Source: Rhodohalobacter barkolensis
GTDB taxonomy: Bacteria > Bacteroidota > Rhodothermia > Balneolales > Balneolaceae
Assembly (NCBI RefSeq): GCF_002834295.1
Contig: NZ_PISP01000002.1
Span: 1 to 64,000, forward strand
DNA length: 64,000 nt
Direction: 5' to 3'
Position 1 is the first letter of the stretch. Every line of letters begins with the position of its first letter. Shown in pieces: positions 21,128 to 43,234 of this stretch. The translations under genes were made by a program, and so were the position numbers. The notes under the pieces are model-generated. The model did not search any database, was not told where the DNA came from, and saw nothing but the letters and a program-made list of their open reading frames with translations.

Positions 21128-21151
21128 CCTTTTATTTCTGTGATTAATTGA
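21128..21151. repeat. Left attachment site (direct repeat of clpS 3' end)
   Basis: 24 bases identical to 42906-42929. On the minus strand they encode QLITEIKG, the last codons of ClpS, followed here by TAA. This is the displaced original chromosomal side of the integration site, directly upstream of purQ. Confidence 0.9.
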
Positions 21152-21214
21152 TATATGCCCCTTAAAAATTTAAATAACAATAATTTACTGTAATTTTTTA
21201 ATGTATCATCGTGT

Positions 21215-21239
21215 AATTAGGACACGTATAGGACACAAA
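21215..21239 (+). repeat. Left arm repeat of the element (GGACAC motifs)
   Basis: 25 bases with two GGACAC copies, differing at one base from 42747-42771. It lies 63 bases inside the left attachment site. It is probably an integrase arm-binding site, inferred from position and duplication at both ends. Confidence 0.65.
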
Positions 21240-21742
21240 GTATTAATTTCAAAGGGATTTGATGGACGTTTGTGTTGGGAAATGCTAACCCATCTGTACT
21301 GCTTCTGCAATGATACGGGTTATTACTGAATTTTGCAGAATTAGTAAAGCTATTAAGTAGTTAATGCAAGGGGTCAATTTGATAGTATAAAAACATATTT
21401 TACAGGTGTTTATAGAAGTGTAAGTATACTGTTTTTAGTAAATTAGAAACAACAATCAATAAAACAGGTGGGATTAGGATCTTACACCCTGCAAAATTTT
21501 AGAAATACTGACTTAGAAGCAGATAAATTTTACTCTCAGATTTGTGTGTAAACAGTTTTAGTCATCTAATTAGATCATTTAAACTATATTTATGTAAACC
21601 TTATTGTTGCATTCATATATTGCACTTTTAAAACAAAATGCCTTGTCCAAGTCCAAAAGTAAGATAGTCGGTTCTTTGTTGTTTTGTTTAGAAAATTTCT
21701 AAGGGTTATGTTGCTAACATACCATAATAAAACTTATAGCTA
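21240..21742. other. Element left end, no gene seen
   Basis: About 500 A/T-rich bases with stops in all frames and no conserved protein fragment that I could recognise. It would have to supply any promoter for the lipoprotein gene at 21743 (plus), and perhaps for purQ on the other strand. Confidence 0.5.
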
Positions 21743-22231
21743 ATGAAATATATTTATATATCAGGGTTCTATATTTCCATCTTGTTTTTAAGCTTTTCTT
21801 TGACAGGTTGTTCAAAAACTGAAACTGATAATACTGTTCAAGAGACAGAAGCAGTACCAATAAATAAATTTGAAGAAACAGCTACGGGGGATAGTTTTAT
21901 AGTAAAATTCAAATATGATGATGGGCAAGAGAATGAGAAAATAGCAAATGCTTTGGTAACTATAGATGTATTTGATGACTTAGGATTTTCGGAAGGTGAA
22001 GTTTTATCATTGATTAGACTATCAATAATTCGTTCGCAATATGAATTGAACTATCCGAGATCTTTTAAGCTATCTGAAAAAGATAATGCTGTATTTGTTT
22101 CTACTGACGATGATGGATTGTCAATATTGATACGTGCCATAGGAGCTAATGCAATGGGAGTTGAAAGTACAATAACAGTGATTGATAAATATGATAAACA
22201 AGGAGAGCATATCGAGATGTTTTCAATGTGA
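21743..22231 (+). CDS. Small lipoprotein of unknown function (element cargo)
   Basis: 162 aa. Signal peptide ending in FSLTGCSK (lipobox Cys about residue 23), then an acidic linker. A compact domain follows (DSFIVKFKYDDGQENEKIANALVTIDVFDDLGFSEGEVLSLIRLS and on) of predicted alternating strands and helices. I do not recognise a family. It is the first gene inside the element's left boundary. Confidence 0.7.
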   Translation: MKYIYISGFYISILFLSFSLTGCSKTETDNTVQETEAVPINKFEETATGDSFIVKFKYDDGQENEKIANALVTIDVFDDLGFSEGEVLSLIRLSIIRSQYELNYPRSFKLSEKDNAVFVSTDDDGLSILIRAIGANAMGVESTITVIDKYDKQGEHIEMFSM

Positions 22232-22260
22232 TGAGCCTACTATAATTTTTTTTAGTTAAA

Positions 22261-22416
22261 ATGAATAAAGAGCGCTTAAAACCATGGGAACTGAGAGAGC
22301 AGCAGAACAAGCCGAAAGGCTGTATTGCTATCGTATGGCATAAATTAAAAATAGCTTTGATATGGATAGCGTTGGCAATCGCAGTAGCGATTGACCTTAT
22401 CTTAAGCTTATTTTAA
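22261..22416 (+). CDS. Small single-pass membrane protein
   Basis: 51 aa: MNKERLKPWELREQQNKPKG, then a hydrophobic helix (about residues 31-49; IALIWIALAIAVAIDLILSL) and immediate stop. The basic, Pro-containing head and single tail anchor look like a genuine small protein. It follows the lipoprotein gene by 29 bases on the same strand. Function unknown. Confidence 0.5.
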   Translation: MNKERLKPWELREQQNKPKGCIAIVWHKLKIALIWIALAIAVAIDLILSLF

Positions 22417-22581
22417 CTCATGTTATTTTTCTTGGATTATAATTTTAAATGCAAAAAATATAATCAGATTTCAAACCTGAAATAAATAAAAAGGGCTACC
22501 AAAATTTCTTTTCATAAAACTGTAAATGGCTAATAATTACTACTACAAGAAACAAATCAGTAGTAATAAAATTTAGCAAAA

Positions 22582-23133
22582 ATGATAACATCAGAAATTG
22601 AAGAGTCACTAATAAAAGAATTATTTGAGTACAGCCAACGGGCAATTTTGACACCCGCCAATCTTGGAATTTTTCAGAAGGGGACGAAAGATCAAGTTAT
22701 TGAAATATTGGAGCAGATAGACGTAAACCAACTTATTAATCTTGAATCAAGAAAAGAGTATGATGAGTGGTTTGACGAGATTGTACTGCCATTTCATGTA
22801 GGGTTATTTCCCTTGTTCAGAGAGAACTTAGTTGTTTCGAAGGGTAACCCATACTCATATAGTGCACGACTTCTCACACAGTATTTGAAGTACCTTTCAA
22901 CAAGGACAGTTGTGTATTATGTCTCATCTGAGATTCTCATAGGTTTGGTCCATCCTATTATTTCAAACAAATATTTGAGAAGTTTTTCTGATTTAGGGAT
23001 CAAAATGGTTAACCAAATTGAAAATCGTGAGCAGTACTACAAAGTAATTAAAGACTATAGAACGAGATTGGATATGGATCTATGTGAACAGAATGAGGCT
23101 TTATTGGAGATGGATTTTGGTATTGAAGTGTAG
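22582..23133 (+). CDS. Conserved helical protein, full-length copy of a gene with three dead copies nearby
   Basis: 183 aa with no signal peptide or membrane segment; mostly helical with many charged and Tyr/Leu residues. Family not recognised. Its last about 85 codons (from about RLLTQYLKYL to the end, RTRLDMDLCEQNEALLEM) have recognisable decayed relatives at 24098-24336, 27589-27825 and 31598-31833. Those share codon-by-codon alignment over HP..N.YL.....LG.K.V.QI.N...YY........RLD. The presence of one intact and three broken relatives suggests repeated duplication inside this element. Confidence 0.65.
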   Translation: MITSEIEESLIKELFEYSQRAILTPANLGIFQKGTKDQVIEILEQIDVNQLINLESRKEYDEWFDEIVLPFHVGLFPLFRENLVVSKGNPYSYSARLLTQYLKYLSTRTVVYYVSSEILIGLVHPIISNKYLRSFSDLGIKMVNQIENREQYYKVIKDYRTRLDMDLCEQNEALLEMDFGIEV

Positions 23134-23219
23134 GCTATTATTTAGTACCCAATATGTAAATAGAAAACCTTTTAAGCCACCTTATATGAAAACTTTTTGG
23201 TAAGAGTATTTAAAAATCT

Positions 23220-23756
23220 TCAATTATGAAGTATGACGAAGGTGTCTAAAAAATCAATAATATTATTTGACTTCTGATCTGAAAGTTCGCCTACTATTGT
23301 GATACCCACTCTGATAATTCTATTGTCATCTGATATCCAATATCCTTTCAATCTTAATAATGCTCCTTCATATTGAAAACTAAAGTCGTAGCTCAATTTG
23401 GGACGACCATCACCAAATTCTGTCCAATTATTATTTGCTCTTTCAGGATTAACACCCATAGATCGAATGAATTCATTATTCGATTCTTCCATATAATTCC
23501 TTAATTGAGTTACGCTTTGGTTCCTTGGAATAGATCCCGTAACAGTTATAGTGAAGAGAGCACCTCCATTACTATATTCTTCAATACTTTGATATGCGTA
23601 ACCTGAACCCATGCTTGTTGCTGCTTCTACTTTAGTTGGATTTGAAGGAAAGCGTGCGGCAAATCTTTCTTCGTTGTTAGTCCATAAAGATTGTGCATCA
23701 ACTGATGTCGATAATAGGATAAATGCTATAATTGTATTTAGGGTATATTTGTTCAA
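23220..23756 (-). CDS. Secreted protein of unknown function
   Basis: 178 aa. Signal peptide MNKYTLNTIIAFILLSTSVDAQS with a typical A-Q cleavage site and no lipobox, so exported. The mature part starts LWTNNEERFAARFPSNPTKVE, a pattern seen in small periplasmic proteins where WxxxxxxFxxxFPxxP begins a beta-sandwich domain. FDTFVIL-type strands end the protein. It lies 5 bases after the small membrane protein gene at 23762-24022 and is probably co-transcribed with it. Confidence 0.65.
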   Translation of the reverse strand: MNKYTLNTIIAFILLSTSVDAQSLWTNNEERFAARFPSNPTKVEAATSMGSGYAYQSIEEYSNGGALFTITVTGSIPRNQSVTQLRNYMEESNNEFIRSMGVNPERANNNWTEFGDGRPKLSYDFSFQYEGALLRLKGYWISDDNRIIRVGITIVGELSDQKSNNIIDFLDTFVILHN

Positions 23757-23761
23757 CGGTG

Positions 23762-24022
23762 TTAATTATCAGAGTTTTCGCTATAAAATGTTTGTTTCAT
23801 AGCAGTTGCATCTTTTTTTAGTTTTCTACTCATATAAAATGAAAAGACGATTAATACTATTATAACTACTGAAAATTTAGCATCATTGACTACTAAATCA
23901 TATAACAGTAGTAATGAAAATCCAATGATTGCATAAATGAACTTATCCGATTTACCTTCAATTCTCGATATGGTATTCATTTTCTCAAAATCTCGATCAA
24001 TTTTGTTTTCTCTTTCTCCCAT
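23762..24022 (-). CDS. Small membrane protein with two predicted helices
   Basis: 86 aa. Charged N terminus (MGERENKIDRDFEKMNTISRIEG), then two adjacent hydrophobic segments (about 28-45 IYAIIGFSLLLLYDLVV and 50-68 SVVIIVLIVFSFYM) and a basic tail. No family recognised. It precedes the secreted 178-aa protein gene by 5 bases. Confidence 0.6.
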   Translation of the reverse strand: MGERENKIDRDFEKMNTISRIEGKSDKFIYAIIGFSLLLLYDLVVNDAKFSVVIIVLIVFSFYMSRKLKKDATAMKQTFYSENSDN

Positions 24023-24097
24023 AAATGCAACTGTTAGTAGTTAATAAATTATACTACTTGATATCAAAGTATTCAATTTATGTCAAAATTATCTTCA

Positions 24098-24336
24098 CCT
24101 TCCTAACTTAATAGGTCATAAATCTCACAATCTTTGCTATCTCCCTAATCGATAGATCTCTCCATCCTATCATTTTAAATCAATATTTGAATCATTAGCC
24201 TGAATTAGGAGTTAAGATGGTTAATCAGATTAAGAATAGATTGAAATATTATGAAATTGTTGATCACTAAAGTACAAGATTGGATATGGGTCTGCGTGAA
24301 CTGAATGTGGCTGTATTAGAAATGATTTTTCTGTAA
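24098..24336 (+). pseudogene. Remnant A: decayed 3' end of a relative of the 183-aa gene
   Basis: Codon-by-codon alignment to the 22582-23133 gene: LHPIILNQYLNH, ELGVKMVNQIKNRLKYYEIVDH, then TAA where the intact gene has a Tyr codon, then STRLDMGLRELNVAVLEM. At least two in-frame stops (a TAG after NH and the TAA above). Remnant B shares the same TAA, so A and B descend from an already broken copy. Confidence 0.75.
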
Positions 24337-24393
24337 TAGATGTGTAATTTGAAAATGTGAAGTCAAAGGGTGAATTTATAAGCAGGCTGCTTA

Positions 24394-25254
24394 TTACTCA
24401 TAGTATTCATATTCTCGCTCTATTATATACTTTGGAATTTCATTAATAAACTGAATTCTCTTCGTCCAATTCCCATTTTCATCATAATCGTATTTATAAG
24501 TTTCTCTTTCTATCAAACTGTCCTCTGAATTAAACTGTTTCATTTCAATCAGATTACCATTTTTATCAAAATCAGAAAGATACTTGAAAGCTAATCTGTC
24601 GTCAGAATACGAGTTCCTTTCAATCTGATTACCATTTTCATCGTATTTGTAAGTATATTTAAAATCAAAGTCACCTTCTAAATCGTACTCTTTCCATTCA
24701 TTTACATATCCTCTCTCGTTATATTTATAAGTTGTTCTCGCAACTAAATTGCCGTCTGAATTGTACTTATTTGTTTCAATTTGATTTCCATTTTCGTCAT
24801 ATTTGTAAGTATAACTAATAGCCAAACTGCCGTCCGAATTGTATGAGTTTGATTCACTAATATCTCCCTTCTCGTCATATTTATAAGTATATTTAGATTC
24901 TAAACTGCCATCTGAATTATACATGTTCTCTTCAATATGATTTCCCTTCTCATCATATTTAGAAATATATTTATATTCTAAGCTACCGTCTGAACCATAC
25001 GAGTTAACTACAACTCTATTTCCTTTCTCATCATATTCTATCTGCTCATCATTTTGCCAAGAATATTGTTTTGCTCTTTTACCTTTTTCTATTTCTCCAA
25101 AACGGTCTACAGCTTCATATGAAATCTCAGTGTATGATTGAACTTCACCTTTTAAATTATCATTCGTCCAATCATTTTCATTTAATTGATTTGAACAGCT
25201 ATTTAATGTGAAAACCAAAGTAATGGCTAAGGCTAACTTTTGAATTTTATACAT
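24394..25254 (-). CDS. Lipoprotein with RHS/YD-like tandem repeats
   Basis: 286 aa. The leader ends in LNSCSNQ (lipobox Cys about residue 20). From about residue 65 the protein is a series of roughly 24-residue units of the form Y-K-Y-D-E-x-G-N-x-I-E-x-N-x-Y-N-S-D-G-S-L. This resembles RHS/YD repeats and the YwqK-like repeats of surface proteins, which fold as beta-sheets. About eight units are visible; the later ones are more divergent. No toxin domain follows, since the protein ends REYEYYE. Surface-exposed location is inferred. Confidence 0.75.
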   Translation of the reverse strand: MYKIQKLALAITLVFTLNSCSNQLNENDWTNDNLKGEVQSYTEISYEAVDRFGEIEKGKRAKQYSWQNDEQIEYDEKGNRVVVNSYGSDGSLEYKYISKYDEKGNHIEENMYNSDGSLESKYTYKYDEKGDISESNSYNSDGSLAISYTYKYDENGNQIETNKYNSDGNLVARTTYKYNERGYVNEWKEYDLEGDFDFKYTYKYDENGNQIERNSYSDDRLAFKYLSDFDKNGNLIEMKQFNSEDSLIERETYKYDYDENGNWTKRIQFINEIPKYIIEREYEYYE

Positions 25255-25443
25255 CTTACGTCTCTACATTATTTTCAAGTCAATTTGTGGATATGCTTTT
25301 TAACACAGGCATATCAACATTCAATTGAGGATGTCCTTATTTCGTAATTAAGTTTTGTTCAATTGCTTCTTAAAATGTTATGGTCAAGATTAAGAAAACT
25401 CACTTATTAACAAAGTACGAACATCATATTATGCTAAAGTGAA

Positions 25444-25833
25444 TTATTGATTTAAATCTTCATCAAGTATTGTCCCTTCTTCCTTCGCCTTATTAATTAA
25501 CCCCCAAAAATCATTGATAGGAATCATTGGGGTGTACTGTCCCCACGTCCATTTTCCATCCATGCGCCCATTTTTGCCAACTATGTAATATCCAATTCGG
25601 TATTCAACAACTATCTTATTAGCGTCTTTGGGATTTGCTAATTTACCTTCAATCTTGGTTCGCCTTAGTCTTTCAATGATAAAGTATTTCTCAGGATTAT
25701 TTTCCTGCTGCATAGTAGTCATGCTTTCAATTTCGAAATACACATTGGCTTTTCGTGAAATATCTTTTGTTTTAACTACTCTCTTTTTCCCTTTTCTTGT
25801 TCGGTTGATGAAATCAGCAAAGGATTCTTTCAT
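25444..25833 (-). CDS. Hypothetical protein, basic N terminus
   Basis: 129 aa, no signal peptide. The basic start (DFINRTRKGKKRVVKTKDISRK) is followed by a beta-rich domain (KIVVEYRIGYYIVGKNGRMDGKWTWGQYTPMIP) and a helical end. NGRMDGKWTWGQYTPMIPI is distinctive but I cannot assign a family. A nucleic-acid-binding role is possible from its basic charge only. Confidence 0.6.
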   Translation of the reverse strand: MKESFADFINRTRKGKKRVVKTKDISRKANVYFEIESMTTMQQENNPEKYFIIERLRRTKIEGKLANPKDANKIVVEYRIGYYIVGKNGRMDGKWTWGQYTPMIPINDFWGLINKAKEEGTILDEDLNQ

Positions 25834-26081
25834 GATATAATGATTGAATTAAGTTTATTTCCGTGAATTAACTCGACATTTTCCTCATTGACGATTTCAT
25901 TTAGCCTCAGAGGATTTTGTGTGAAAATTAGTTTTAAACGATACTTTTTAATTTGTTTTACTTCAACAATAAAATCATCAAAATTGTACCTGATGAAAAT
26001 AACTTGCTTATAAAAGTATATTTTGGTTTTATGGCTTAAAGTTATACACAAAGAAATATAATATCGGGGATTCGATGTCAT
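25830..26081 (-). CDS. Possible small protein coupled to the 129-aa gene (doubtful)
   Basis: 83 codons, Lys/Ile/Asn rich, ending in an ATGA overlap with the 129-aa gene, which argues for it. Against it, its start overlaps the divergent 497-aa gene by 7 bases, its composition is that of A/T-rich non-coding DNA, and there is no alternative ATG. It may be only the leader region of the downstream gene. Confidence 0.25.
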   Translation of the reverse strand: MTSNPRYYISLCITLSHKTKIYFYKQVIFIRYNFDDFIVEVKQIKKYRLKLIFTQNPLRLNEIVNEENVELIHGNKLNSIIIS

Positions 26082-27568
26082 TAAAGGAGTTTTTAGATAA
26101 GAACCATTCTACAATCAATACAACAGGGCATGTTTTAAGTTATTTGCAAAATAACAAAATTCAAAAAAATCAGAGACAGTTAGCACAACTTGAAGTGCTC
26201 AATAATTCACTTCTTAATGAGCAGAATGAGTTAAGGAAGAAGGAAGTTGAAAGATTCGAAAAATTGATGGATCAAAATGAAAAGGATAAAAGAGAAAAAG
26301 AAAAAAAGGAGAAATTAAAAACGGAGGTGTTAGAATTAGGACCTGCCACCAAATCTTTGTTGAAAAAAATTGAGCATAACAAAGACGAATATGGTGATTT
26401 AACAATCAGTTTTTTGCTAAGACATTCAGAATTAAATATCAAAAAAATGCGAGAGCATAAAGGGTTGGTAAATGATATTAACTTCTTTGATTATTTACAT
26501 GAGTTAGATGAAAAGTATAGTGAGATCAACTCAAATTATGAAGGTGTTATCGAAGAATTTTCAAGTGAGTTGGCTGAATCATTAATTCAATTTCAAAGTG
26601 TTGTTTTAGGGGCAGAACTTTTAAGCAAATCAAAAAAGGATGTTCTAAGTGAGCAGAGCGAAAACACTAAAAAGTATCTTAAGAGATTAAAAATAAATAT
26701 TGCAAATGAATTAAATGGCGGTAGCTCTTTAACAAGTCTTATTACCCATTTGAAGAAATACAATTCACTTGGCGATAAAATAAATGGGATGGGAACATTA
26801 CACGACTTAAGAGATTATCCTCTACCAATTAGTTTTGATGAAGCACAGTATTTACATGGTTTGTTAACTGAGATAGAGGACGATACGGATACTTTTATAA
26901 ATGAGGTTGATACTAAGGTTGATGAACTCCTATCAGTGTTTGAAGGTAATGGAGAAGATACTCTTGGCAAAGTTGAGAAAATCATTAAAAAAAATACGGA
27001 TGTACTCTCAGTTGAGGACTTAGAATTCTTACTTCGTAATTCTTCTAAAGAGGTGGTTTTAATTGCTAAAGAAAAAATAGAAAATGGTTTAGATAAACTG
27101 AGAATTGCTTTAAATAATGATAAAAAAATTATAGACAAGGTTCCGATATCTAATCAAGAATTAAAAAGTGAGGGCTACAAAGGATTCAGTCTACCGTCAA
27201 CAGTAATGAATAGAAATTTTTTTATCAGCGCAGAATACAAAACATCTATAGTAGAAGGGTTTCTAAAATCAAACATAAAGGAATTTATCCCTGAAGTGGA
27301 CAAGTTGCATAAAATGGCTCTTGGTTTTGGGATGGCTTCATTTTTTTTGTTGTTTATGCTTGTTTTGGCCGATCCTGAACTAAGTAATCAGGTAGAGCTC
27401 ACTATGATTATATTTCTCTTTTTTATTCCTATGACGTTTTCTTTGATATTTATTTTTCAGTCTCAGAACAAATTAAAGAAGGGTTTAAAGCAACTAAAAA
27501 AAGAAGTTGAATCAGAAATTGATGATATAGATCGCAAAATTTCAACTATTAAAATTAATATGAGGTGA
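26075..27568 (+). CDS. Coiled-coil protein with a C-terminal membrane hairpin
   Basis: 497 aa. Residues about 30-90 are strongly charged coiled coil (RQLAQLEVLNNSLLNEQNEL, DQNEKDKREKEKKEKLK). A long helical middle part follows, with a second coiled coil around 255-350. Two adjacent membrane helices (about 413-433 and 442-463: LGFGMASFFLLFMLVLADP; MIIFLFFIPMTFSLIFIF) precede a final short coiled coil. The layout resembles membrane-anchored structural or dynamin-partner proteins, but no GTPase or other catalytic motif is present. Function unknown. Confidence 0.65.
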   Translation: MSLKEFLDKNHSTINTTGHVLSYLQNNKIQKNQRQLAQLEVLNNSLLNEQNELRKKEVERFEKLMDQNEKDKREKEKKEKLKTEVLELGPATKSLLKKIEHNKDEYGDLTISFLLRHSELNIKKMREHKGLVNDINFFDYLHELDEKYSEINSNYEGVIEEFSSELAESLIQFQSVVLGAELLSKSKKDVLSEQSENTKKYLKRLKINIANELNGGSSLTSLITHLKKYNSLGDKINGMGTLHDLRDYPLPISFDEAQYLHGLLTEIEDDTDTFINEVDTKVDELLSVFEGNGEDTLGKVEKIIKKNTDVLSVEDLEFLLRNSSKEVVLIAKEKIENGLDKLRIALNNDKKIIDKVPISNQELKSEGYKGFSLPSTVMNRNFFISAEYKTSIVEGFLKSNIKEFIPEVDKLHKMALGFGMASFFLLFMLVLADPELSNQVELTMIIFLFFIPMTFSLIFIFQSQNKLKKGLKQLKKEVESEIDDIDRKISTIKINMR

Positions 27569-27588
27569 CATGCTATTGGTAAGGATCA

Positions 27589-28011: not shown

Positions 28012-29493
28012 ATGCGTTATTCACCATTACTCCTTCTTGCATCCTTTTTTACCTTTTCTTCCTGTTCAACAGAGAGCACTCCTGTTTATCAGTTAAACAC
28101 ATCGGCTGAACCAAATGAGGCAGGGACTGTTTCACCGTCAAATTCAGAAGCTGAAGAGGGTGAATCTATTCAGATAACAGCTTCAGCAAATGTCGGATGG
28201 GTGTTTGATCGATGGCAAGGTGATCATGCAGGGATGAGCAATCCTGCAAGTATCTCAATGAATAGTGATAAGAACATAACAGCTCTGTTTGTGAGGAAAG
28301 ATTATCCACTAACTATTTCGACTGTAGGTGAAGGGGAGGTAGAAGAACAAATTGTATCACAACCAAAGCAAACAGATTATACCTACGAAACAGTTGTTGA
28401 ATTGATTCCCATTCCAAGTGATGGATGGAAGTTTATTGAATGGAAGGGTGATTTGGTAGGAGGAGAGAGTCCTGTTCAAATTACGATTGATGGGGAAAAA
28501 AACGTAACAGCAGTATTCGAACCTATTGCATATTTAGCTAAAAATGGAGTCACAATTATGTGTCCAAATGCAAACTTAGGAGATATTGGGATTGTAAATG
28601 GTGTAGAGTATGAAGTTGTATCAAGAGAAAGATTATGGCAAAAAGTTGAAGAAAATGCAGATCTGACTAAAATTTGTGTTTCTAAGATAATAAGAATGTC
28701 TGATTTGTTTAAAGATAATGATTTTAACCAAGCTATCGGAAATTGGGATGTCAGTTCTGTAACAAACATGTCGAATATGTTCAGAAATAGCACATTCAAT
28801 CAACCCATTGGAAATTGGGATGTCAGTTCTGTAACAAGAATGGATTGGATGTTTCATGGAAGTCAATTTGACCAACCAATTGGTAATTGGAATGTCAGCT
28901 CAGTAACAAGAATGGATTGGATGTTTGATGGAAGTCAATTTGACCAACCCATTGGGGATTGGGATGTAAGTTCAGTGGTGAGTATGTTTGACATGTTTAA
29001 TAACAGTCAATTCAATCATCCGATTGGAAATTGGGACGTCAGTAATGTGGAAAATATGGTAAGAGTGTTTTCATTTTCTGTATTTAATCAACCCATTGGA
29101 AATTGGGATGTCAGCTCAGTAACAACTATGGAAGCTATGTTTTATGATAGTAATTTTAACCAACCAATTGAAAATTGGGATGTAGGCTCAGTAACAAACA
29201 TGTATAGAATGTTCTTTATGAGCCCATTCAATCATCCGATTGAAAATTGGGATGTTAGCTCCGTTGCAGATATGGATGGTATGTTCTCAAATAGTCCTTT
29301 CGATCAGCCAATTGGAAATTGGAATGTTAGTTCTGTAATAAATATGGATTACATGTTTAATTCGGCAGTCTCATTTAATCAAGATATATCTAAATGGTGT
29401 GTTCTGAATATCGATTCTGAACCACAAGGTTTTTCTGATGGTTCACCTTTAGATGAATCTAATAAACCCATATGGGGAACTTGTCCTAATTAA
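28012..29493 (+). CDS. Surface lipoprotein: two InlB-like B-repeats plus DUF285 (BspA-like) repeat array
   Basis: 493 aa. The leader ends FSSCSTES (lipobox Cys about residue 19). Two divergent InlB B-repeat domains follow (about 25-92 and 93-168; EEGESIQITASANVGWVFDRW, then DGWKFIEWKGDL). After a linker with a Cys pair (ITIMCPN-like, then KICVS), nine 24-residue DUF285 units run from about 235 to 465, consensus F-N-Q-P-I-G-N-W-D-V-S-S-V-T-x-M-x-x-M-F. A C-terminal cap (KWCVLNI... PIWGTCPN) ends the protein. DUF285 repeats are known from BspA-like surface proteins that bind host or matrix components; the ligand here is unknown. It is closely related to the gene at 32163. Confidence 0.85.
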   Translation: MRYSPLLLLASFFTFSSCSTESTPVYQLNTSAEPNEAGTVSPSNSEAEEGESIQITASANVGWVFDRWQGDHAGMSNPASISMNSDKNITALFVRKDYPLTISTVGEGEVEEQIVSQPKQTDYTYETVVELIPIPSDGWKFIEWKGDLVGGESPVQITIDGEKNVTAVFEPIAYLAKNGVTIMCPNANLGDIGIVNGVEYEVVSRERLWQKVEENADLTKICVSKIIRMSDLFKDNDFNQAIGNWDVSSVTNMSNMFRNSTFNQPIGNWDVSSVTRMDWMFHGSQFDQPIGNWNVSSVTRMDWMFDGSQFDQPIGDWDVSSVVSMFDMFNNSQFNHPIGNWDVSNVENMVRVFSFSVFNQPIGNWDVSSVTTMEAMFYDSNFNQPIENWDVGSVTNMYRMFFMSPFNHPIENWDVSSVADMDGMFSNSPFDQPIGNWNVSSVINMDYMFNSAVSFNQDISKWCVLNIDSEPQGFSDGSPLDESNKPIWGTCPN

Positions 29494-29554
29494 ACTCTAT
29501 CAATTTCAGTATTAATACAAATCAGGTTTCTCCGAACTCTATACTTAAATAAAC

Positions 29555-34004: not shown

Positions 34005-35705
34005 ATGATACGATTTATGAATAATTTTAAGCTTTCTCTAAACTTGCTGATTTTTATGTCACTAATAGTGATCGCATCATGCAGTGATTCTCCATCAAAC
34101 ACAGAGCCTGAAGAATTAGGTGAAATTTCAATTACAAACATTTCAAATGGGGACATTTTAAGCGGTGAAGTAGATTTGAATTTATCAATAAATGCCGCTG
34201 ATGAGCTGAATCAAATTATTATTAAAGTGAGAGGAAACAAAATTGCTTCATTACAACCCAATGAAAGTAATTTTAGTTTAACAACTTGGGAATTCGCAAA
34301 TGGTAATGCAGAGGTGAAATTAGAAGCCATTACTACTAACGGAGATTTAATAAGCAGTACAACTAATGCAGTCTTTGAAAATTATCTATTTAAGTGGCAA
34401 GTTGGAAACTTTGTAAATGACTTAACTGACAACCCATTGGATGATCAAGTTTATTTAATTGCATCTAAACCAAATGGGGAATTAATAGGAATAGAAGAAA
34501 TTACGAGTAAATCACATGAGTGGGTTGGTATTGGGGCTCCTGAGGAATTTGATTTTAATCTACCGAGCTACTTTAACCTGACATTAATGCATACGTGGTA
34601 TTATTCTAATAATAGTGATTACAAATATTTGAAGTTACAATCAGTAACAGGAAATGAAATATGGACAGAGATTAATCAGGATGAACTTGGAGGATTTCCA
34701 TCAGTCAGTAAATTTAATGATTCCTACCAAGAAGATTTAAGAACCATTGAAAATAACGAGGATAATATATATATAATGGAGCCATTTCCATCAGTTAATT
34801 CAAATTCTGAACATGAAGGGGGAGTAAACGTAATTGTTGAAAACATAGAAGGGAGTGGGTCTAATTGGTTCTTAGTATATGTAGGGAAGGGAGATCAAAA
34901 TAGCGGATATGAATATTTCCAATTTAACGAAAATAATGATTTATATGATTATGAGTTAAATATTGATGTTGCAAATCATTCGTCAGATATTCTAATTGAA
35001 CATAAACTTTCATCAAGTTTTTATTTTATAGAAAACGCAATAAAGGATTCAACTTATACTATAGATTATAATGATGATAGAATAGGTACAGTTGAAAGTT
35101 CGTTACTAATACCCAATAATTTGAATTTTATTTTTAACGGAATTTATGTTCGATATGGCGAGAATAGATATGTCTACTCATTAACTAATTTTATTACGGA
35201 CAGGACTACAAATATTCCACGAGTTAAACATTTTACCCCTACAAATGCAGAGGTAGAGGAGCATATCGTTCAGCTTTATGATGAATTAAATAGTAATTCT
35301 GAAACCACTATTTATTATGAGCAAAGATCGATTGGTAATATAATTAACGAACTTGATTTAATTGATGTTAAATACGAATTGATAAATATTGATAACGAGC
35401 ATTATAATATTTTCAATGAAGGGGATGCAGACATTTATAGGTATAATAATTATTACGCAGGTGAAACCTACACCTCTCAGTGGGAAGTTTTTTCATCATC
35501 TGACATACATGAATTTGCTTATCCAAATATTTCTGATTTTCTAAGTGATATTGCACCACAATTTGAATGGTCAGATTTAAATTTGACAAACTTAGAATAT
35601 TATAAACAATTAAATTCTGATGAAAACATCATCCTCCTGAAGCAATTCTTGATGTATCAAGGTTTATCTACAGAAAATACTTCTTCTATGTCCATTCGAT
35701 TTTGA
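34005..35705 (+). CDS. Large lipoprotein with an N-terminal Ig-like domain
   Basis: 566 aa, or 562 from the ATG at 34017. The signal peptide ends IVIASCSDS (lipobox Cys). Residues about 38-125 look like a bacterial Ig-like domain (ISITNISNGDILSGEVDLNL... AEVKLEAITTNGDLIS). The remaining 430 residues are Asn/Tyr/Asp-rich with predicted beta structure and no recognised family. It follows the DUF285 gene by 42 bases on the same strand and is probably the last gene of the lipoprotein set. Confidence 0.7.
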   Translation: MIRFMNNFKLSLNLLIFMSLIVIASCSDSPSNTEPEELGEISITNISNGDILSGEVDLNLSINAADELNQIIIKVRGNKIASLQPNESNFSLTTWEFANGNAEVKLEAITTNGDLISSTTNAVFENYLFKWQVGNFVNDLTDNPLDDQVYLIASKPNGELIGIEEITSKSHEWVGIGAPEEFDFNLPSYFNLTLMHTWYYSNNSDYKYLKLQSVTGNEIWTEINQDELGGFPSVSKFNDSYQEDLRTIENNEDNIYIMEPFPSVNSNSEHEGGVNVIVENIEGSGSNWFLVYVGKGDQNSGYEYFQFNENNDLYDYELNIDVANHSSDILIEHKLSSSFYFIENAIKDSTYTIDYNDDRIGTVESSLLIPNNLNFIFNGIYVRYGENRYVYSLTNFITDRTTNIPRVKHFTPTNAEVEEHIVQLYDELNSNSETTIYYEQRSIGNIINELDLIDVKYELINIDNEHYNIFNEGDADIYRYNNYYAGETYTSQWEVFSSSDIHEFAYPNISDFLSDIAPQFEWSDLNLTNLEYYKQLNSDENIILLKQFLMYQGLSTENTSSMSIRF

Positions 35706-35715
35706 TTCGCATTTG

Positions 35716-36021
35716 TTAGTTAAGTGTTAACTCATTCTTTAAAAGCACAGAAGAATTTTTAAGTAATGTTGGAAAAGAATCAACGGACACCGATTCCTTT
35801 CCGCCCTCGGGCAGGAGAAACAGCACACATTTCTTACTCGGGAAAGTAGGATCTATGTATTTCTGTAGGTCCTCAATACTAATTAATTTCTTCATCTTAT
35901 TGCCGTTGCAAGCTTTCTTAAATTTTCTCTTGGATTTGGGTGTCAAGAAAGAATAGAGAACCTGAATTCTCATAATCATATCCTTGACTTCATTGATTGT
36001 ATATGTTCTATCCTGATCCAT
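35716..36021 (-). CDS. Hypothetical protein downstream of the AAA+ ATPase
   Basis: 101 aa, no signal peptide. Helical N-terminal half (YTINEVKDMIMRIQVLYSFL, then a basic patch TPKSKRKFKKACNGNKMKK) and a mixed C-terminal half. No family recognised. It lies about 190 bases after the ATPase gene on the same strand, so it may belong to that transcript. The basic patch could contact nucleic acid; that is a guess. Confidence 0.55.
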   Translation of the reverse strand: MDQDRTYTINEVKDMIMRIQVLYSFLTPKSKRKFKKACNGNKMKKLISIEDLQKYIDPTFPSKKCVLFLLPEGGKESVSVDSFPTLLKNSSVLLKNELTLN

Positions 36022-36214: not shown

Positions 36215-37333
36215 TTAAAAACCCAAATGCGCAGTAGATTGGAACCGTCTTTCAACGATCCGATTTCTCTTTTGTAGCTGTTTGAACGAAGTGTCGATAT
36301 CAACGTCGTTAATCTTTGCAAAAAGAAACAGTTCTTTTAAATCTGCAGGATTTAACTTCATTTCCACCCACTCTGATTCTCTATATTTCTCGGGGAATTC
36401 CTCTTGAAATATGAACTCATAGAAATCAATCGGGAATTGGTCATTGTAGTTGTCAGCTCTGATTTCCTCAAGTACATCCACCCTTTGGTTTCTAAGTACA
36501 TTGGATGGAATTCGATCAGGTGTATTTGTTGTCGAAAGAACGAGTAGATTCTCCCTAAGTAAGGAATTATCCAAGATGTTCAATAATCCAATATGCCCGT
36601 CTCGACCTGTCACAATGGATGCGACTTCTTCAATTACGAGAACAATGAGTCTATTTTCTACAACTCTGTTAAGGGTCAACAGCCCGAAGTCATTAAGCAG
36701 CTTAACATCTTGAGAACTACCAATTCTAATTATGATTGCGTCAAGTTCGTCAATGAGCAAAAAATTTATTGCATAATCAATAAATCGACTCTTGCCAACC
36801 CCATGTCTACCATATAGTAATATAGACCTCTTAAACCCTAAATTATTATTCTGATAGAATTCTTTGTTGTTTAAAAAATTGATTATGCCTTCATGTACTC
36901 GTTTCAAGGTGCTGTTATACTCGTGGGTCGGAAAGTAATGGCTACCGAAATACTTAGTCCGATTTTCTTTCTGTAGCAGACGCAAGTACTCTGATCCCAT
37001 TTCCCTATAAAGGTCAGGCTCATCACCGAGAGCTTCGAGTAGATCCATCATATCTTCATCGGCATCATTATAATTTTCTCGTGCAGATACTTTTGATAAA
37101 ACGAAATTATCTTGACGAGTAGAAGACGGATAATATATGCCTGATGGAATTTCAGATTCAATCGTATGAGGGGGGAATGACAGAAGGGGTCCCTGATCTA
37201 ATACGACGTTCTTGTATTTCTTTGAGTTGTTAATTGAGAAGTACTTTTTCGCTTCTGTTAATAGGTGAGCAACGGTATTATCAGATTTTTTGGAGGTTGA
37301 CGATGTGAATGTGGTCAAGGTTTCCATAGGCAC
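36215..37333 (-). CDS. AAA+ ATPase
   Basis: 372 aa. An N-terminal region without known domain (1-165) precedes an AAA+ core: Walker A GRHGVGKS (175-182), Walker B LIVLVIEEV (229-237) with Glu in place of the usual Asp before the catalytic Glu, sensor 1 STTNTPDRIPSNVL (Asn270), and Arg281/Arg284 as finger candidates. A helical C-terminal domain follows. There is no signal peptide. The fold resembles single-copy bacterial AAA proteins of mobile elements. It could act in element replication, partition or defence; nothing in the sequence decides which. Confidence 0.8.
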   Translation of the reverse strand: MPMETLTTFTSSTSKKSDNTVAHLLTEAKKYFSINNSKKYKNVVLDQGPLLSFPPHTIESEIPSGIYYPSSTRQDNFVLSKVSARENYNDADEDMMDLLEALGDEPDLYREMGSEYLRLLQKENRTKYFGSHYFPTHEYNSTLKRVHEGIINFLNNKEFYQNNNLGFKRSILLYGRHGVGKSRFIDYAINFLLIDELDAIIIRIGSSQDVKLLNDFGLLTLNRVVENRLIVLVIEEVASIVTGRDGHIGLLNILDNSLLRENLLVLSTTNTPDRIPSNVLRNQRVDVLEEIRADNYNDQFPIDFYEFIFQEEFPEKYRESEWVEMKLNPADLKELFLFAKINDVDIDTSFKQLQKRNRIVERRFQSTAHLGF

Positions 37334-37684: not shown

Positions 37685-38668
37685 ATGGAAATAAAGGACG
37701 TGACAGGATTAAGCGATCCACTTAAGAAATTGATTGAGGTAATATCTCAAGGGGTTGGTGCAGTATTCAAGCCGTATTTAATCAGAAAAACAGCTGATGC
37801 TAAAGCATATGAAATAAAAAAAATTTCTGATGCAATAAAAGTGAATCAAGTTAATCTAAAAGAGATCACTTACTCTGATAACCAATTAAGTCTTACTTCA
37901 ATAGATAGAAAGGAATTAAAAACAGAAGATACTTTAGAAGTACGAGCAGAAAATAGAAATCAATTTCAAGAGCAGAAAAAACAAAAAAACATAGAAAATA
38001 TAACTCAAAAAGCTGCTCAGCAGTTGGGGAATGAGGAAAATGTTTCAAAAGAACCTGTAGATGAAGATTGGACGACAAGGTTTTTTAATTATGCAGAGGA
38101 GATTTCAAATGAAGAAATGCAAAATTTATGGGCTCAAATTTTAGCAGGGGAAATTAAAAGACCAAATTCATATTCATTAAGAACCTTGCAAGTTCTTAGA
38201 AATCTATCAAGGGAAGAGGCTTTTATATTTGCCAAAGTAGCAAATTATGCAATCAAATCTCAAAATGAATGGTTTGTATATAATGAGAAAAATGTATTAA
38301 AAGATTTTGGAATAAGTTTTAAAGAGACAACCTTATTACAAGAGATTGATCTATTGCATTCAGGAATAAGCTATAATTTAGATAAATCATCATCTGTTGT
38401 AAGTGCGAACTTCATAGTAGGAAACAAATTTGTGGTTGTTGAGAAAAAACCTAATGCCCCAAGAATAAATTTCTCAATTTTATTATTTACTTCAATAGGT
38501 AGTGAAATGCTCAATTTAATTCAGCCAAAACCTGATTTTAAGTATATACAGAAATTAGCTTCCGATTTAAGATCTAATGATATTACTGTGAAGTACGCAG
38601 ATATTCTTGAAAGAAATGACAGTAAAGTAAAATATTCTAAACCATTAATGGATATACCTGAATTATAA
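37685..38668 (+). CDS. DUF2806-like protein
   Basis: 327 aa, no signal peptide. The N-terminal start (EIKDVTGLSDPLKKLIEVISQGVGAVFKPYLIRKTADAKA) and the central block DDW-type (DEDWTTRFFNYAEEISNEEMQNLWAQILAGEIKRPNSYSLRTL; about 125-170) match the DUF2806 pattern. A Lys/Gln-rich coiled segment links the two parts (about 85-115). The family is common on prophages and islands but has no firmly known function. The C-terminal half is a mixed domain ending in an LNLIQPKPDF segment. Confidence 0.65.
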   Translation: MEIKDVTGLSDPLKKLIEVISQGVGAVFKPYLIRKTADAKAYEIKKISDAIKVNQVNLKEITYSDNQLSLTSIDRKELKTEDTLEVRAENRNQFQEQKKQKNIENITQKAAQQLGNEENVSKEPVDEDWTTRFFNYAEEISNEEMQNLWAQILAGEIKRPNSYSLRTLQVLRNLSREEAFIFAKVANYAIKSQNEWFVYNEKNVLKDFGISFKETTLLQEIDLLHSGISYNLDKSSSVVSANFIVGNKFVVVEKKPNAPRINFSILLFTSIGSEMLNLIQPKPDFKYIQKLASDLRSNDITVKYADILERNDSKVKYSKPLMDIPEL

Positions 38669-39047: not shown

Positions 39048-39063
39048 TGTATTTTGATTGTGA

Positions 39064-40353
39064 TTAATTAAAAGTTTCTTGTTTAAATGGTACGGCTTGA
39101 GCTGATCCGTATAGACTTATATTCAATTGGCATATGATAGAAAAGATTTCTAATTGCATTGATTCAGGTACTATAATTGAATCGTAACGTGTAGCCAATG
39201 GTATTGATGGATACTTTGTATAAATCATTGATAGCAATGATAATATATACTGAGACTCCCATTGAGTATACAAGTAATAGATATATGATTTATCTTTTTC
39301 TACTTGATGTAACCTGTCGCCAAATACGAGTTTGAATCTCTTTGCTGTATTCAATGATTTGAGTGTAACTATCCATTCAGGATATTTTGAGTCAATCACT
39401 TGATGCAATTGATTTACAATAGTTCCTTTCCAATGATGGGTATAGTGTGAACGGTAAGCCAATGTCATAAACGCTTCTTTAACCGTATTTCTCAAGAATT
39501 TTTTGAATAGGGTATCATTTAGATGATCTTTTGGATGATAGATACACTTACGAATATGGGCTAATTCCCTATACTTGTAATCGTGTTCATCTTCATCAAT
39601 GAGATTGGCTAATGATTTATCTAAGGTTGATTCGATTTCATCATTTGAAAATTTCTTAAAAATAAGATCCTGTAAATGTTCATAGATGTTACCGTTCTCT
39701 AAATGGTTGAATAGGGTATAATTGGTTGGCAGATCATCTCTCTGTTTGAGTTGTAGAAGCGTATATGTAGCCATTGAAGACCGTATATCATAGAAAGATA
39801 CATTTTCACCTGTATTTGTTTTGAAGTGTCTAAGGTGTGATTTTTTGATGTGGCAATGATCCGTAATAATACGGTTATCAATTAAACGTTTCTTGTAAAT
39901 CCTTGTATCACAGTTTTTTACGTTATTGTAAGCAGTGAAATTCTCTCGTTTTTTAATCTCTTTTTCAGGTAAATCAAGGGTAATTTTCTTGGATGAGTTA
40001 AACAGAGATTGTAATGCAGGATTATCATTTAGATCCGAATAGGTATAAAAATCCTTAAGCATGTGATAGGTCTTACTATGTGGTTTCAGGTTCACAGTAA
40101 TTGATTCAAAACCGTTTACAGTAGCATCTAATTCTATATTGGGATTCATTTTGTATTTTTTACACGTGCCGTAAATGTCAGGCTCATTAATCCCTCTTGA
40201 CCGTGCTAACTCTTCTGCCATCTCTTGAGGTATATAGCTATGTACCCATTTATTTTGACTGTAAGACCATTTGCGAACGGGATGTATTATTTCATATTCA
40301 TCTAATACGTCTAACACCGTTGAATACCATTCCCTCGAAAATAGCTTAATCAA
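39064..40353 (-). CDS. Polymerase A-like palm-domain protein, probable replication protein of the element
   Basis: 429 aa from a TTG at 40353, but the open frame continues about 65 codons further upstream. Three segments match the order of family-A polymerase palm motifs as seen in mobile-element proteins. Motif A-like is FYDIRSSM (Asp189). A motif B-like helix is FLRNTVKEAFMTLAYRS (about 286-302). Motif C-like is ATRYDSIIVPE (Asp391), preceded by WESQYILSLLSMIYTKYP. DIYE-like NGNIYEHL (221-228) supports this. No exonuclease domain is visible. A role in replicating the excised element is inferred. The gene is probably frameshifted at its 5' end. Confidence 0.6.
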   Translation of the reverse strand: MIKLFSREWYSTVLDVLDEYEIIHPVRKWSYSQNKWVHSYIPQEMAEELARSRGINEPDIYGTCKKYKMNPNIELDATVNGFESITVNLKPHSKTYHMLKDFYTYSDLNDNPALQSLFNSSKKITLDLPEKEIKKRENFTAYNNVKNCDTRIYKKRLIDNRIITDHCHIKKSHLRHFKTNTGENVSFYDIRSSMATYTLLQLKQRDDLPTNYTLFNHLENGNIYEHLQDLIFKKFSNDEIESTLDKSLANLIDEDEHDYKYRELAHIRKCIYHPKDHLNDTLFKKFLRNTVKEAFMTLAYRSHYTHHWKGTIVNQLHQVIDSKYPEWIVTLKSLNTAKRFKLVFGDRLHQVEKDKSYIYYLYTQWESQYILSLLSMIYTKYPSIPLATRYDSIIVPESMQLEIFSIICQLNISLYGSAQAVPFKQETFN

Positions 40354-41145: not shown

Positions 41146-41337
41146 TCAATTGATTGTGTTATCTTCTCTTAGTGATTCCATGTAGTTATTGACATCTGAC
41201 TCTTTGAATCGTACTAACTTAGTGCCAATTCTAAGTACAGGTGGAAAATTATTATTTCTTTTCCTTTCCCGATCAACCGTTTGAACACTAACGTTTAGTA
41301 ATTCCGCTAATTCATTCCGTGTAACTAATCCATTCAT
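41146..41337 (-). CDS. AlpA-like/excisionase-type HTH protein
   Basis: 63 aa from ATG 41337 (MNGLVTRNELAELLNVSVQT), chosen over an upstream ATG at 41394 because the domain begins here. The sequence is a complete winged-HTH of the AlpA/MerR-like excisionase family: RNELAELLNVSVQTVDRERK recognition helix, PPVLRIGTKLVRFKESDVNNYM wing and terminal helix. Such proteins control integrase expression or direct excision. It sits between the integrase and the replication gene, all on minus. Confidence 0.75.
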   Translation of the reverse strand: MNGLVTRNELAELLNVSVQTVDRERKRNNNFPPVLRIGTKLVRFKESDVNNYMESLREDNTIN

Positions 41338-41501
41338 TTTACATACGCTTCCATTTCTTAATACATTCAATTGTGTATTAAAAGAGCATATCAAATCCGT
41401 ATTGTTACAAGCTATATTTATTACTTGAGTGTAATAAAAACAGATATTTATGGAATATTATTTATTATATAAAAAGTAATTCATGATACTTGAGAATGGA
41501 A

Positions 41502-42695
41502 CTACTTGTCTAATCTAATCTCATTTAAAAATGATTCATACTCTTTTAAAGCTTCTATCTTTTCTGAATGATAATCATAGCGATTATATATTGAACGGAT
41601 TGCAGAGTGTTCATTGGCAGAAGCATTATTTAACAGATGATCAATAATATGTGGCTGTATACCCTTTTCACTAAGATGTGTATTGAGAGTCCGTCTTAAA
41701 TCGTGAAAATTGAAATTATCAATACCTGTTTTCTCTCTGATCAGTTTTTTCATCGGCTTGAATGTTGTCGGATATGTATGATAATGGCTCTTCCAATTGG
41801 AATGAAAGACATATTTAGATTTTTTATTCTTGGATCTTGGAATAATGATATCATTCATAATAGTATCGCAGAGATACACCGTATCACCATTTCCATTTTT
41901 TGTATTTTCAGGCGGTATAGTCCATATCTGATTATCAAGATCTAATTGATCCCATGTCATTTTGAGCGTTTCTTTTTTCCGTTTGGCTGTATAAAAAAGA
42001 ACCTGTACTAAATCTTTAAATGGTTGAGTTGTTAAATCTACGTGTTTGAAGATGCTTTTTATCTCTTCTTTACTATAAAAAACTTCCCTTGGTTTTGGTT
42101 TTGGGAGACCTACCATTGCATTTATAACAGGATTGTGTAACTCGTCTGCTAAAGATCTACCATGAATGAAAAGTGATGAAAGCATTTGCTTTAATTTTCG
42201 GATATGTGATACAGAATACTCTTGTTTTTGGTAATCCTGTAAAAAGTAGGTGATATCTTTTGTTCTAATTTGATCCATTTTTTGAGATCCGAATACAGGT
42301 AATATATGTTTTTCAATCGTGGATGTATTGGTAGTATATGATGCCTCACGTAGATTGGGTTTCATTGTGTAATCCCTGTAATTCTCATACACTTCTTTTA
42401 GAGTTGGTACAGATGAAACAGATTCCTTATTCAAATCATCAGGATATACACCTTTTTGAATGTTGAGATAGTATTCCGTGGCTATCTCTCTTGCTTCCGC
42501 CAATGATAGAGCAGGGTAATCACCTATATTTTTTCGTTTCGATTTACCTTTTGAATCTCTGTATCTGAAACAGAAGACTTTTTTAGTTTTGGACACTCTT
42601 AAACTTAAACCTTGGGTTGTGTCTGTGTATTCTTTCTGTTTTTCCGTGAATGGGTAGCTTTCAATTGCCCTGTGAGTAAGCTTAATAGATGCCAT
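41502..42695 (-). CDS. int: P4-type tyrosine integrase
   Basis: 397 aa. N-terminal DUF4102-type arm-binding domain (about 1-85; LTHRAIESYPFTEKQKEYTD, FCFRYRDSKGKSKRKNIGDY, ALSLAEAREIA). A SAM-like core-binding domain spans about 110-190. The catalytic domain has the first Arg in TAKRKKETLKMTW, the H-x-x-R box HDLRRTLNTHL, and the Tyr nucleophile in the YNRYDYHSEK region. It lies 210 bases inside the right attachment site and presumably recombines the clpS 3' end. P4-type integrases usually target tRNA genes, so a protein-gene target is less common. Confidence 0.92.
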   Translation of the reverse strand: MASIKLTHRAIESYPFTEKQKEYTDTTQGLSLRVSKTKKVFCFRYRDSKGKSKRKNIGDYPALSLAEAREIATEYYLNIQKGVYPDDLNKESVSSVPTLKEVYENYRDYTMKPNLREASYTTNTSTIEKHILPVFGSQKMDQIRTKDITYFLQDYQKQEYSVSHIRKLKQMLSSLFIHGRSLADELHNPVINAMVGLPKPKPREVFYSKEEIKSIFKHVDLTTQPFKDLVQVLFYTAKRKKETLKMTWDQLDLDNQIWTIPPENTKNGNGDTVYLCDTIMNDIIIPRSKNKKSKYVFHSNWKSHYHTYPTTFKPMKKLIREKTGIDNFNFHDLRRTLNTHLSEKGIQPHIIDHLLNNASANEHSAIRSIYNRYDYHSEKIEALKEYESFLNEIRLDK

Positions 42696-42746
42696 ATTTG
42701 AGAGTCATTTAATTGATGCGTGAATCCAATATAAAAAATTTGAGAC

Positions 42747-42771
42747 AATTAGGACACATATAGGACACAAA
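42747..42771 (+). repeat. Right arm repeat of the element (GGACAC motifs)
   Basis: 25 bases matching 21215-21239 with one difference, followed at 42772-42780 by a third TTAGGACAC copy. It lies about 135 bases inside the right attachment site and upstream of the integrase gene start. It is a likely integrase arm-binding site. Confidence 0.65.
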
Positions 42772-42901
42772 TTAGGACACTTGGAAAGAATAAGATAGAG
42801 AAAGGAAAAACGAGACGTTCAGAGATAAGTTAATGTATTACAGTGCCTTAGGCTGTATTATGTGGTGTCTTAAGATGGGATAGGGTAGGGTGTGATAATA
42901 T

Positions 42902-43234
42902 CTACCCTTTTATTTCTGTGATTAATTGAATTTCCTGCAGCACGCCGTTTACTTTCAGGCACTCCTCAAAACTTCCTTCAAAAACGGTGGCTTTACCTTC
43001 ATTATGAACCTGAAGAGTATACTTTTCGGCCTGATGAACGGTGCACCCCAAAGCCTTGATGAGCTGATTGATCACTTCATCAAATGTGTGAATATCATCA
43101 TCATAAAGAATGACTCGCCATGGAGTATCTACAGACTCTTCCTCTTCAGTTTTTTCGAGCACGTCCGCACCGGGTGTCTCAGCCGGTTTTTCACCGGAGT
43201 TGAGAATAGTTCGTATGTGCGAAGGCTGGGTCAT
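42902..43234 (-). CDS. clpS: ClpS adaptor protein
   Basis: 110 aa. A variable N-terminal tail (about 1-35) is followed by the ClpS core: WRVILYDDDIHTFDEVINQL (the DD/H-containing binding pocket), GCTVHQAEKYTLQVHNEGKATVFEGSFEEC. ClpS delivers N-degron substrates to ClpAP/ClpCP. It follows purS by 7 bases. Its last codons are the attachment site of the integrated element; the stop codon differs (TAG now, TAA in the displaced copy at 21126-21128). Confidence 0.95.
   Translation of the reverse strand: MTQPSHIRTILNSGEKPAETPGADVLEKTEEEESVDTPWRVILYDDDIHTFDEVINQLIKALGCTVHQAEKYTLQVHNEGKATVFEGSFEECLKVNGVLQEIQLITEIKG
42906..42929. repeat. Right attachment site inside the 3' end of clpS
   Basis: 24 bases identical to 21128-21151. 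It encodes the last eight residues of ClpS (QLITEIKG) on the minus strand. The element therefore carries the replacement 3' end and ClpS stays intact. Confidence 0.9.

What the first reader, a model, noticed from the sequence alone, without database searches (positions are those of the whole stretch)
21128..42929. A 21.8-kb element integrated in the 3' end of clpS has split a purS-clpS-purQ operon
Seen: a 24-bp perfect direct repeat at 21128-21151 and 42906-42929; it encodes the ClpS C terminus (QLITEIKG). Joining the flanks gives miaA-purS-clpS-purQ-M42-lptB-rhodanese with gaps of 35, 7, 4, 3, -4 and 7 bases, a coherent minus-strand operon. The left copy even keeps the old clpS stop four bases before the purQ GTG. 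Inference: the insertion cut purQ, the M42 peptidase, lptB and the rhodanese off from their original promoter. The first and third of these are expected to matter for growth, so the element must supply transcription or an internal promoter must exist.
Basis: partly seen in the sequence, partly recalled or inferred. Interest (0 to 1): 0.72.

Follow-up and report, generated by a model that had tools for sequence, protein, structure and literature searches.

The report
Mobile element splitting clpS–purQ operon
A 21.8-kilobase mobile DNA element has inserted itself at the very end of the clpS gene, without changing the protein, between genes that close relatives keep side by side; the kind of event is familiar, but the target gene is unusual and the genes left downstream must now be switched on from the element.

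Summary
A perfect 24-bp repeat bounds a 21.8-kb, AT-rich block (33% vs 43% GC) and has no other place in the 3.6-Mb genome at up to 2 mismatches. In 33 of 33 relatives whose locus was read, clpS lies directly against purQ; the sister species G009 carries the uninterrupted junction (empty site). No capsid, relaxase or secretion gene was recognised in the proteins scanned, so I call it an integrative genomic island. The insertion is silent for ClpS and keeps the AAAAGG in front of purQ, but leaves at most 32 bp of host DNA upstream of purQ, so transcription of purQ must come from the element. Most likely source (inferred, not shown): an outward promoter in the 591-bp left end without a long ORF, which in the excised circle would face int, as reported for ICEKp1. 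Consensus scans gave no promoter signal above chance. Known kind of event; the target turned up in none of my paper searches; interest moderate.

The parts
21128..21151 (.). left copy of the 24-bp direct repeat (attachment core), carrying the old end of clpS and the AAAAGG in front of purQ
42906..42929 (.). right copy of the 24-bp direct repeat; encodes the last eight residues QLITEIKG of the intact clpS
21217..21239 (+). putative integrase arm-type site, TTAGGACACGTATAGGACACAAA
   Evidence: 2 places in window and genome, 0 mismatches; arm function inferred
42749..42771 (+). putative integrase arm-type site, TTAGGACACATATAGGACACAAA, followed by a further AATTAGGACAC at 42770-42780
   Evidence: arm function inferred
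21152..21742 (-). 591-bp left end without an ORF of 60 aa or more; would hold the outward promoter for purQ (integrated) and int (circle)
   Evidence: no ORF listed; promoter inferred; consensus scan not above chance
41502..42695 (-). tyrosine recombinase (integrase), 397 aa: Arm-DNA-bind_3, SAM-like and catalytic domains
41146..41394 (-). small HTH_17 protein, excisionase-like by PHROG
   Evidence: phrog_66
39064..40353 (-). 429-aa protein without any family match
37685..38668 (+). DUF2806 protein (TIGR03899 match below its cut-off)
36215..37333 (-). AAA ATPase; 47-48% identical relative in a sister element of G020
35716..36021 (-). 101-aa protein next to the AAA gene; 33% identical relative behind the AAA gene in G020
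34005..35705 (+). 566-aa protein without a family above Pfam cut-off
28012..33962 (+). three genes with InlB B-repeat domains (28012-29493, 29555-31306, 32163-33962), two of them with DUF285 repeats; lipoprotein-like starts by eye
26075..27568 (+). 497-aa protein, no family above cut-off
21743..26081 (.). seven small cargo ORFs (21743, 22582 plus; 23220, 23762, 24394, 25444, 25830 minus); only 24394-25254 has a Pfam match above cut-off (RHS_repeat, 30.8 bits, cut-off 22)
42902..43234 (-). clpS, intact, its last codons and stop supplied by the element side of the junction
43242..43490 (-). purS (upstream part of the split gene string)
20418..21119 (-). purQ, separated from clpS by the element; one copy in the genome
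19377..20414 (-). M42-family aminopeptidase (matches aminopeptidase models below their NCBIfam cut-offs)
18616..19380 (-). lptB (TIGR04406, above cut-off)
   Evidence: homologue behind lptB in the 4 loci

Best explanation
This is an integrative genomic island, brought in by its own tyrosine integrase, that recombined a copy of the clpS 3' end on the element (attP) with the clpS 3' end of the host (attB). SHOWN from sequence: boundaries, empty site in relatives, unchanged ClpS protein end, preserved AAAAGG in front of purQ, at most 32 bp of host DNA left upstream of purQ. INFERRED: in the integrated state the miaA-purS-clpS transcript runs on into int (same strand, 206 bp after the clpS stop), while the displaced purQ-M42-lptB-rhodanese genes are transcribed from an outward promoter in the element's 591-bp left end. 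In the excised circle that same left end would lie directly upstream of int and drive it. So one promoter would do two jobs: int in the circle, the host's purine and LPS-export genes when integrated. Likelihoods: site-specific element in clpS 0.97; purQ transcribed from the element 0.8; from the left-end outward promoter in particular 0.6.
For: 24-bp repeat confined to the two ends; second 23-bp repeat confined to the two ends; integrase with arm-binding domain next to the right repeat and an excisionase-like HTH gene behind it; GC step; clpS adjacent to purQ in 33 of 33 relatives read, with G009 holding the joined sequence over 33 bases. purQ has one copy and shows no decay: 2 amino-acid changes unique to G000 in 232 codons against 7 in G009 and 8 in G019. 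No minus-strand terminator-like site between clpS and int. Precedents: ICEKp1, ICEclc and ICEEc1 use the host tRNA promoter for int when integrated and a far-end promoter when excised (PMC13023037, abstract and two Results sections); for dusA islands putative -10/-35 regions are reported upstream of dusA before and after integration (PMC4482086, passages).
Against: No promoter was demonstrated: the sigma-70 scan of 20900-22300 found 2 sites (both on the minus strand, facing purQ, at 21424-21384, 9 of 12 matches) against 7.1 expected in shuffles; three looser TTG/TAnnnT matches in the left end had no chance control; a promoter-motif count on 154 upstream regions of this genome found no enrichment. 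A weak minus-strand promoter-like match at 42922-42895 (15 sites found, 12.4 expected in that region) means int might have its own promoter. Excision was not shown. The integrase has N357 where 7 of 8 aligned relatives have His (the eighth, L052, has His one column on), so its activity is uncertain. Synonymous sites are near saturation between species, so the constraint test cannot separate selection after the insertion from before it.
Confidence: 0.62

Rival explanations
1. The element is real, but the cut-off genes are served otherwise: purQ by long read-through from inside the element, and M42/lptB by a promoter inside purQ.
For: Minus-strand genes exist inside the element (23220-26081), and no terminator-like site was found in 20900-22300.
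Against: Two plus-strand ORFs (21743-22231, 22582-23133) lie between purQ and the nearest minus-strand cargo gene, so read-through would run antisense to them over about 2.1 kb.
Confidence: 0.25
2. The cut-off genes are poorly expressed and the insertion is a recent, costly event on its way out.
For: Seen in one genome only; the integrase matches reported from the other genomes of the genus (27, at E <= 1e-30) and of a phylum sample (393, at E <= 1e-45) are at most 33% identical; element GC differs from the flanks.
Against: purQ has one copy and lptB no close second copy, and neither shows lineage-specific decay.
Confidence: 0.12
3. Assembly or binning artefact that placed foreign DNA between clpS and purQ.
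For: The genome is a 7-contig assembly of unstated origin and I have no reads.
Against: Both borders fall on a perfect repeat coding for the ClpS end, next to an integrase and a second terminal repeat; a chance join would not give this.
Confidence: 0.02

Closest known systems
Genomic islands of the SGI1 type (3' end of trmE)
   Same: Integration at the 3' end of a protein gene (PMC8409611, abstract start in the listing); an integrase beside the site and a restored protein end are recalled, from no call
   Different: Target is clpS, with the next gene 4 bases behind it; no relaxase or conjugation-related gene recognised here. The SGI1 integrase itself was not compared
dusA-associated islands (5' end of dusA)
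   Same: Island sits in a protein gene, and the question of a new promoter for the gene at its edge was raised there too (PMC4482086, passages)
   Different: Those replace a 5' end; here the 3' end of one gene is replaced and a different gene downstream loses its promoter
ICEKp1 / ICEclc / ICEEc1 int promoter switching
   Same: int on the same strand directly behind the target gene; the far end would face int in the circle (PMC13023037)
   Different: tRNA targets whose terminator is displaced to the far end; here the displaced DNA is a gene string. No conjugation genes recognised here. Promoter not shown
Sister element in G020, contig 72
   Same: Gene order int - 564-aa protein - AAA (47%) - 103-aa and 101-aa proteins (the latter 33%) - converging B-repeat gene
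   Different: Integrase 32% identical, beside a partial tRNA-Arg-like sequence at the contig start (read by eye); the 564-aa protein has no match to the window's 429-aa protein; G020's own clpS-purQ is uninterrupted (L019)

Membership tests
Site-specifically integrated genomic island | direct repeats at both borders that equal the end of the target gene | tested here: met
Site-specifically integrated genomic island | empty site in relatives | tested here: met
   33 of 33 loci read; joined sequence over 33 bases in G009
Site-specifically integrated genomic island | integrase gene next to one border | tested here: met
   206 bp from the clpS stop
Site-specifically integrated genomic island | excision as a circle | not testable with these tools
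   needs PCR or reads
P4-type (arm-binding) tyrosine integrases (label recalled) | Arm-DNA-bind_3, SAM-like and Phage_integrase domains | tested here: met
   all three above Pfam cut-offs
P4-type (arm-binding) tyrosine integrases (label recalled) | catalytic set R, HxxR, H/W, Y (recalled) | tested here: inconclusive
   R239, H331, R334 and Y370 invariant in 9 sequences; N357 where 7 of 8 relatives have H
P4-type (arm-binding) tyrosine integrases (label recalled) | repeated arm sites inside both ends | tested here: met
   23-bp repeat at 21217 and 42749 only; binding itself not tested
Integrative and conjugative/mobilisable element | relaxase or type IV secretion genes | tested here: not met
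   none in Pfam scans of 18 of the 24 element ORFs of 80 aa or more; the other 6 overlap a scanned ORF on the opposite strand
Prophage or phage satellite | capsid, portal, terminase or tail genes | tested here: not met
   PHROGs on 10 element proteins: integrase, excisionase-like/HTH and unknown families, plus one weak terminase-small-subunit match of the HTH protein, E 0.0023; the other element proteins were not scanned with PHROGs
State-dependent int promoter switching (ICEKp1-like) | promoter at the end far from int, facing outward | tested here: inconclusive
   591-bp left end without an ORF of 60 aa has the right geometry, but promoter scan below chance

The most novel reading that the evidence does not exclude
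The island has taken over transcription of host genes: a promoter that evolved to drive int in the circle now drives purQ, an aminopeptidase, lptB and a rhodanese, so host purine synthesis and LPS export are under the control of mobile DNA, while the host's miaA-purS-clpS promoter in turn drives int. clpS may be a recurrent, so far unlisted target of this integrase lineage.
Probability: 0.45. Interest if true: 0.55.

Novelty: new member of a known kind. Interest (0 to 1): 0.4.

Why it matters
Islands are best known from targets whose downstream side can do without the old promoter, such as tRNA genes (general knowledge). This one sits between clpS and purQ, which stand side by side in all 33 relatives read, keeps the ClpS end and the AAAAGG in front of purQ intact, and yet removes the host promoter from genes without a close second copy. 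It makes a clean, testable case of how an element that breaks a gene string stays tolerable.

Tried and rejected
More clpS islands through the integrase: one scan of genome contigs gave one distant Caulobacteraceae integrase (24%); viral contigs gave none; in 28 genus genomes, own included, 4 had matches at E <= 1e-30, that is 3 others at 27-32%; in 394 phylum genomes, own included, 5 had matches at E <= 1e-45, that is 4 others at 30-33%; plasmid records gave 665 with a match, all under 60% identity, the best listed 30.3%. Ten stretches around such integrases and one AAA relative held no ClpS or PurQ match at E 1e-3; the attachment sites of those integrases were not worked out. So no second clpS island was found. 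ClpS as a query in viral contigs: none.

Promoter: sigma-70 scans and a home-made motif count on 154 upstream regions with crude ORF starts gave nothing usable; the second is a weak test.

The 429-aa protein 39064-40353: by eye (recalled motifs) I thought of a single-subunit polymerase. Pfam to E 10, PHROGs, NCBIfam and PDB sequences gave no support; no relative in 91 other family genomes or viral contigs; the structure model was unusable (mean pLDDT 32.8), so no fold search was run. Left open.

AAA ATPase: no relative in viral contigs, two uncultured-phage records at 26-27%; relatives in G003, G040, G043 and G045 lie in stretches without a match to the window's integrase and were not used as elements. 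Defence cargo: PADLOC on 10 proteins, no match better than E 0.0019. Rfam on 18000-46000: none. G008 and G026 match neither clpS nor purQ, so they say nothing about the site. 18 weak ClpS matches in other families of the order were not read.
Full report
WHAT WAS CHECKED. The element is 21,778 bp counting one repeat copy. GC is 0.329 inside and 0.431 in the rest of the window; the step falls near both repeats (1-kb steps). ARAGORN finds no tRNA gene in the window.

THE EMPTY SITE. A ClpS search of 58 genomes, the own one included, found a match in 52, that is 51 of 57 relatives. I read the locus in 33 of these 51: 29 fetched by that search (25 in the same genus, 4 in other genera of the family) and 4 taken afterwards (G030, G031, G032 of the family, G035 of another family in the order). 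In 33 of 33 purQ follows clpS directly, in the order purS, clpS, purQ. In the 29, 4 to 9 bases, stop codon included, lie between the last aligned clpS codon and the aligned purQ start (L006 is cut by its contig end after 24 purQ residues, and in L031 and L032 the first purQ residues are not aligned); in the 4, at most about 18 bases. The other 18 matches, in other families of the order, are weak and were not read. G008 and G026 match neither gene. In G009 the uninterrupted junction reads GAAATTCAATTAATCACAGAAATAAAAGGATAA: five bases of the upstream flank of the right copy, the 24-bp repeat and four bases of the downstream flank of the left copy in one piece. Beyond purS-clpS-purQ the order varies: M42 is next to purQ in 11 of the 28 fetched loci that reach so far, lptB in the other 17.

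ANATOMY. The integrase (41502-42695) has arm-binding, SAM-like and catalytic domains above Pfam cut-offs and lies 206 bp behind the clpS stop on the same strand. An HTH_17 gene with an excisionase/regulator PHROG match follows. A second repeat, TTAGGACAC(G/A)TATAGGACACAAA, lies 65 bp inside the left core and 134 bp inside the right core, with 2 places in the window and 2 in the genome at up to 3 mismatches, and none in 100 shuffles of the window. Its place in both ends and the arm-binding domain make it the likely arm-type site; this is inference. The integrase has N357 where 7 of 8 aligned relatives have His, so it may be impaired. Cargo is a DUF2806 protein, an AAA ATPase, B-repeat/DUF285 genes and unassigned proteins. 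No conjugation or virion gene was recognised in the proteins scanned (18 by Pfam, 10 by PHROGs), one weak terminase-small-subunit match of the HTH protein aside.

A SISTER ELEMENT. G020 contig 72 begins in what reads by eye as part of a tRNA-Arg gene (ARAGORN calls none there), followed by an integrase (32%), a 564-aa protein, an AAA ATPase (47%), two small proteins (the second 33% to the window's 101-aa protein) and a converging B-repeat gene. The order matches the window's element, apart from the excisionase-like and DUF2806 genes, which were not seen there, and the protein between int and AAA, which is not recognisably related. So a similar island exists elsewhere in the genus with another integrase and apparently another target.

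HOW IT WORKS. The repeat on the element carries the end of clpS with a stop codon of its own, so ClpS ends alike in the occupied site and in the old remnant. The repeat also includes AAAAGG, 8 bases before the purQ GTG. But at most 32 bp of host DNA remain upstream of purQ. A host promoter has no room there; transcription must come from the element. The left end has 591 bp without an ORF of 60 aa, and the first two cargo ORFs read away from purQ, so read-through would have to cross about 2.1 kb. In the circle the same left end joins the right end in front of int. ICEKp1, ICEclc and ICEEc1 are reported to use such a far-end promoter for int when excised and the host tRNA promoter when integrated (PMC13023037, abstract and two Results sections). 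I therefore propose that the far-end promoter transcribes purQ and its followers in the integrated state. Against it stands that consensus scans show nothing above chance (2 sites against 7.1 expected; no motif enrichment), and that a weak promoter-like match in front of int itself exists. purQ has one copy; lptB has no close second copy. Amino-acid changes unique to G000/G009/G019 are 2/7/8 of 232 codons for purQ, 12/14/38 of 343 for M42 and 2/7/13 of 173 for lptB, against 15/15/39 of 309 for miaA, 3/5/5 of 79 for purS and 1/8/8 of 98 for clpS; the rhodanese could not be compared in G019. So no decay is seen downstream, but synonymous changes are near saturation and this is weak evidence.

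LITERATURE. (clpS, integrase, attB, genomic island): no paper holds all four terms; of 156 with three, 20 were listed, none with clpS. (clpS, prophage, integration site, integrated): 2 papers, where 'CLPs' means collagen-like proteins and lipopeptides (passages); 12 of 126 listed, none with clpS. Island tables such as TIGER/Islander (PMC12424338, listing only) could not be searched, so 'unreported target' is limited to these searches of open-licence papers.

VERDICT. A well-supported, ordinary kind of event at an unusual target, with a clear and open question about transcription of the displaced genes.

Noticed in passing
window 21217-21239 and 42749-42771: Second terminal repeat (23 bp, one variable base), confined to these two places in the genome; likely integrase arm sites.
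   Followed up: yes
window 41502-42695: The integrase has N357 (in LLNNAS) where 7 of 8 aligned relatives have His; may affect activity.
   Followed up: partly
L052 1-7400 (G020 contig 72): Similar island backbone beside a cut tRNA-Arg-like sequence (by eye).
   Followed up: partly
window 28012-33962: Three neighbouring genes sharing B-repeat domains, two with DUF285 arrays: looks like local duplication of surface lipoproteins.
   Followed up: no
L091 12835-14470 (G040 contig 34): Repeated peptide SQSYLCGIAT in spurious ORFs, possibly a CRISPR array, near an AAA relative.
   Followed up: no
L092/L093 (G043): Two paralogs of the AAA ATPase with one other ORF between them, in a setting shared in part with G045.
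   Followed up: no
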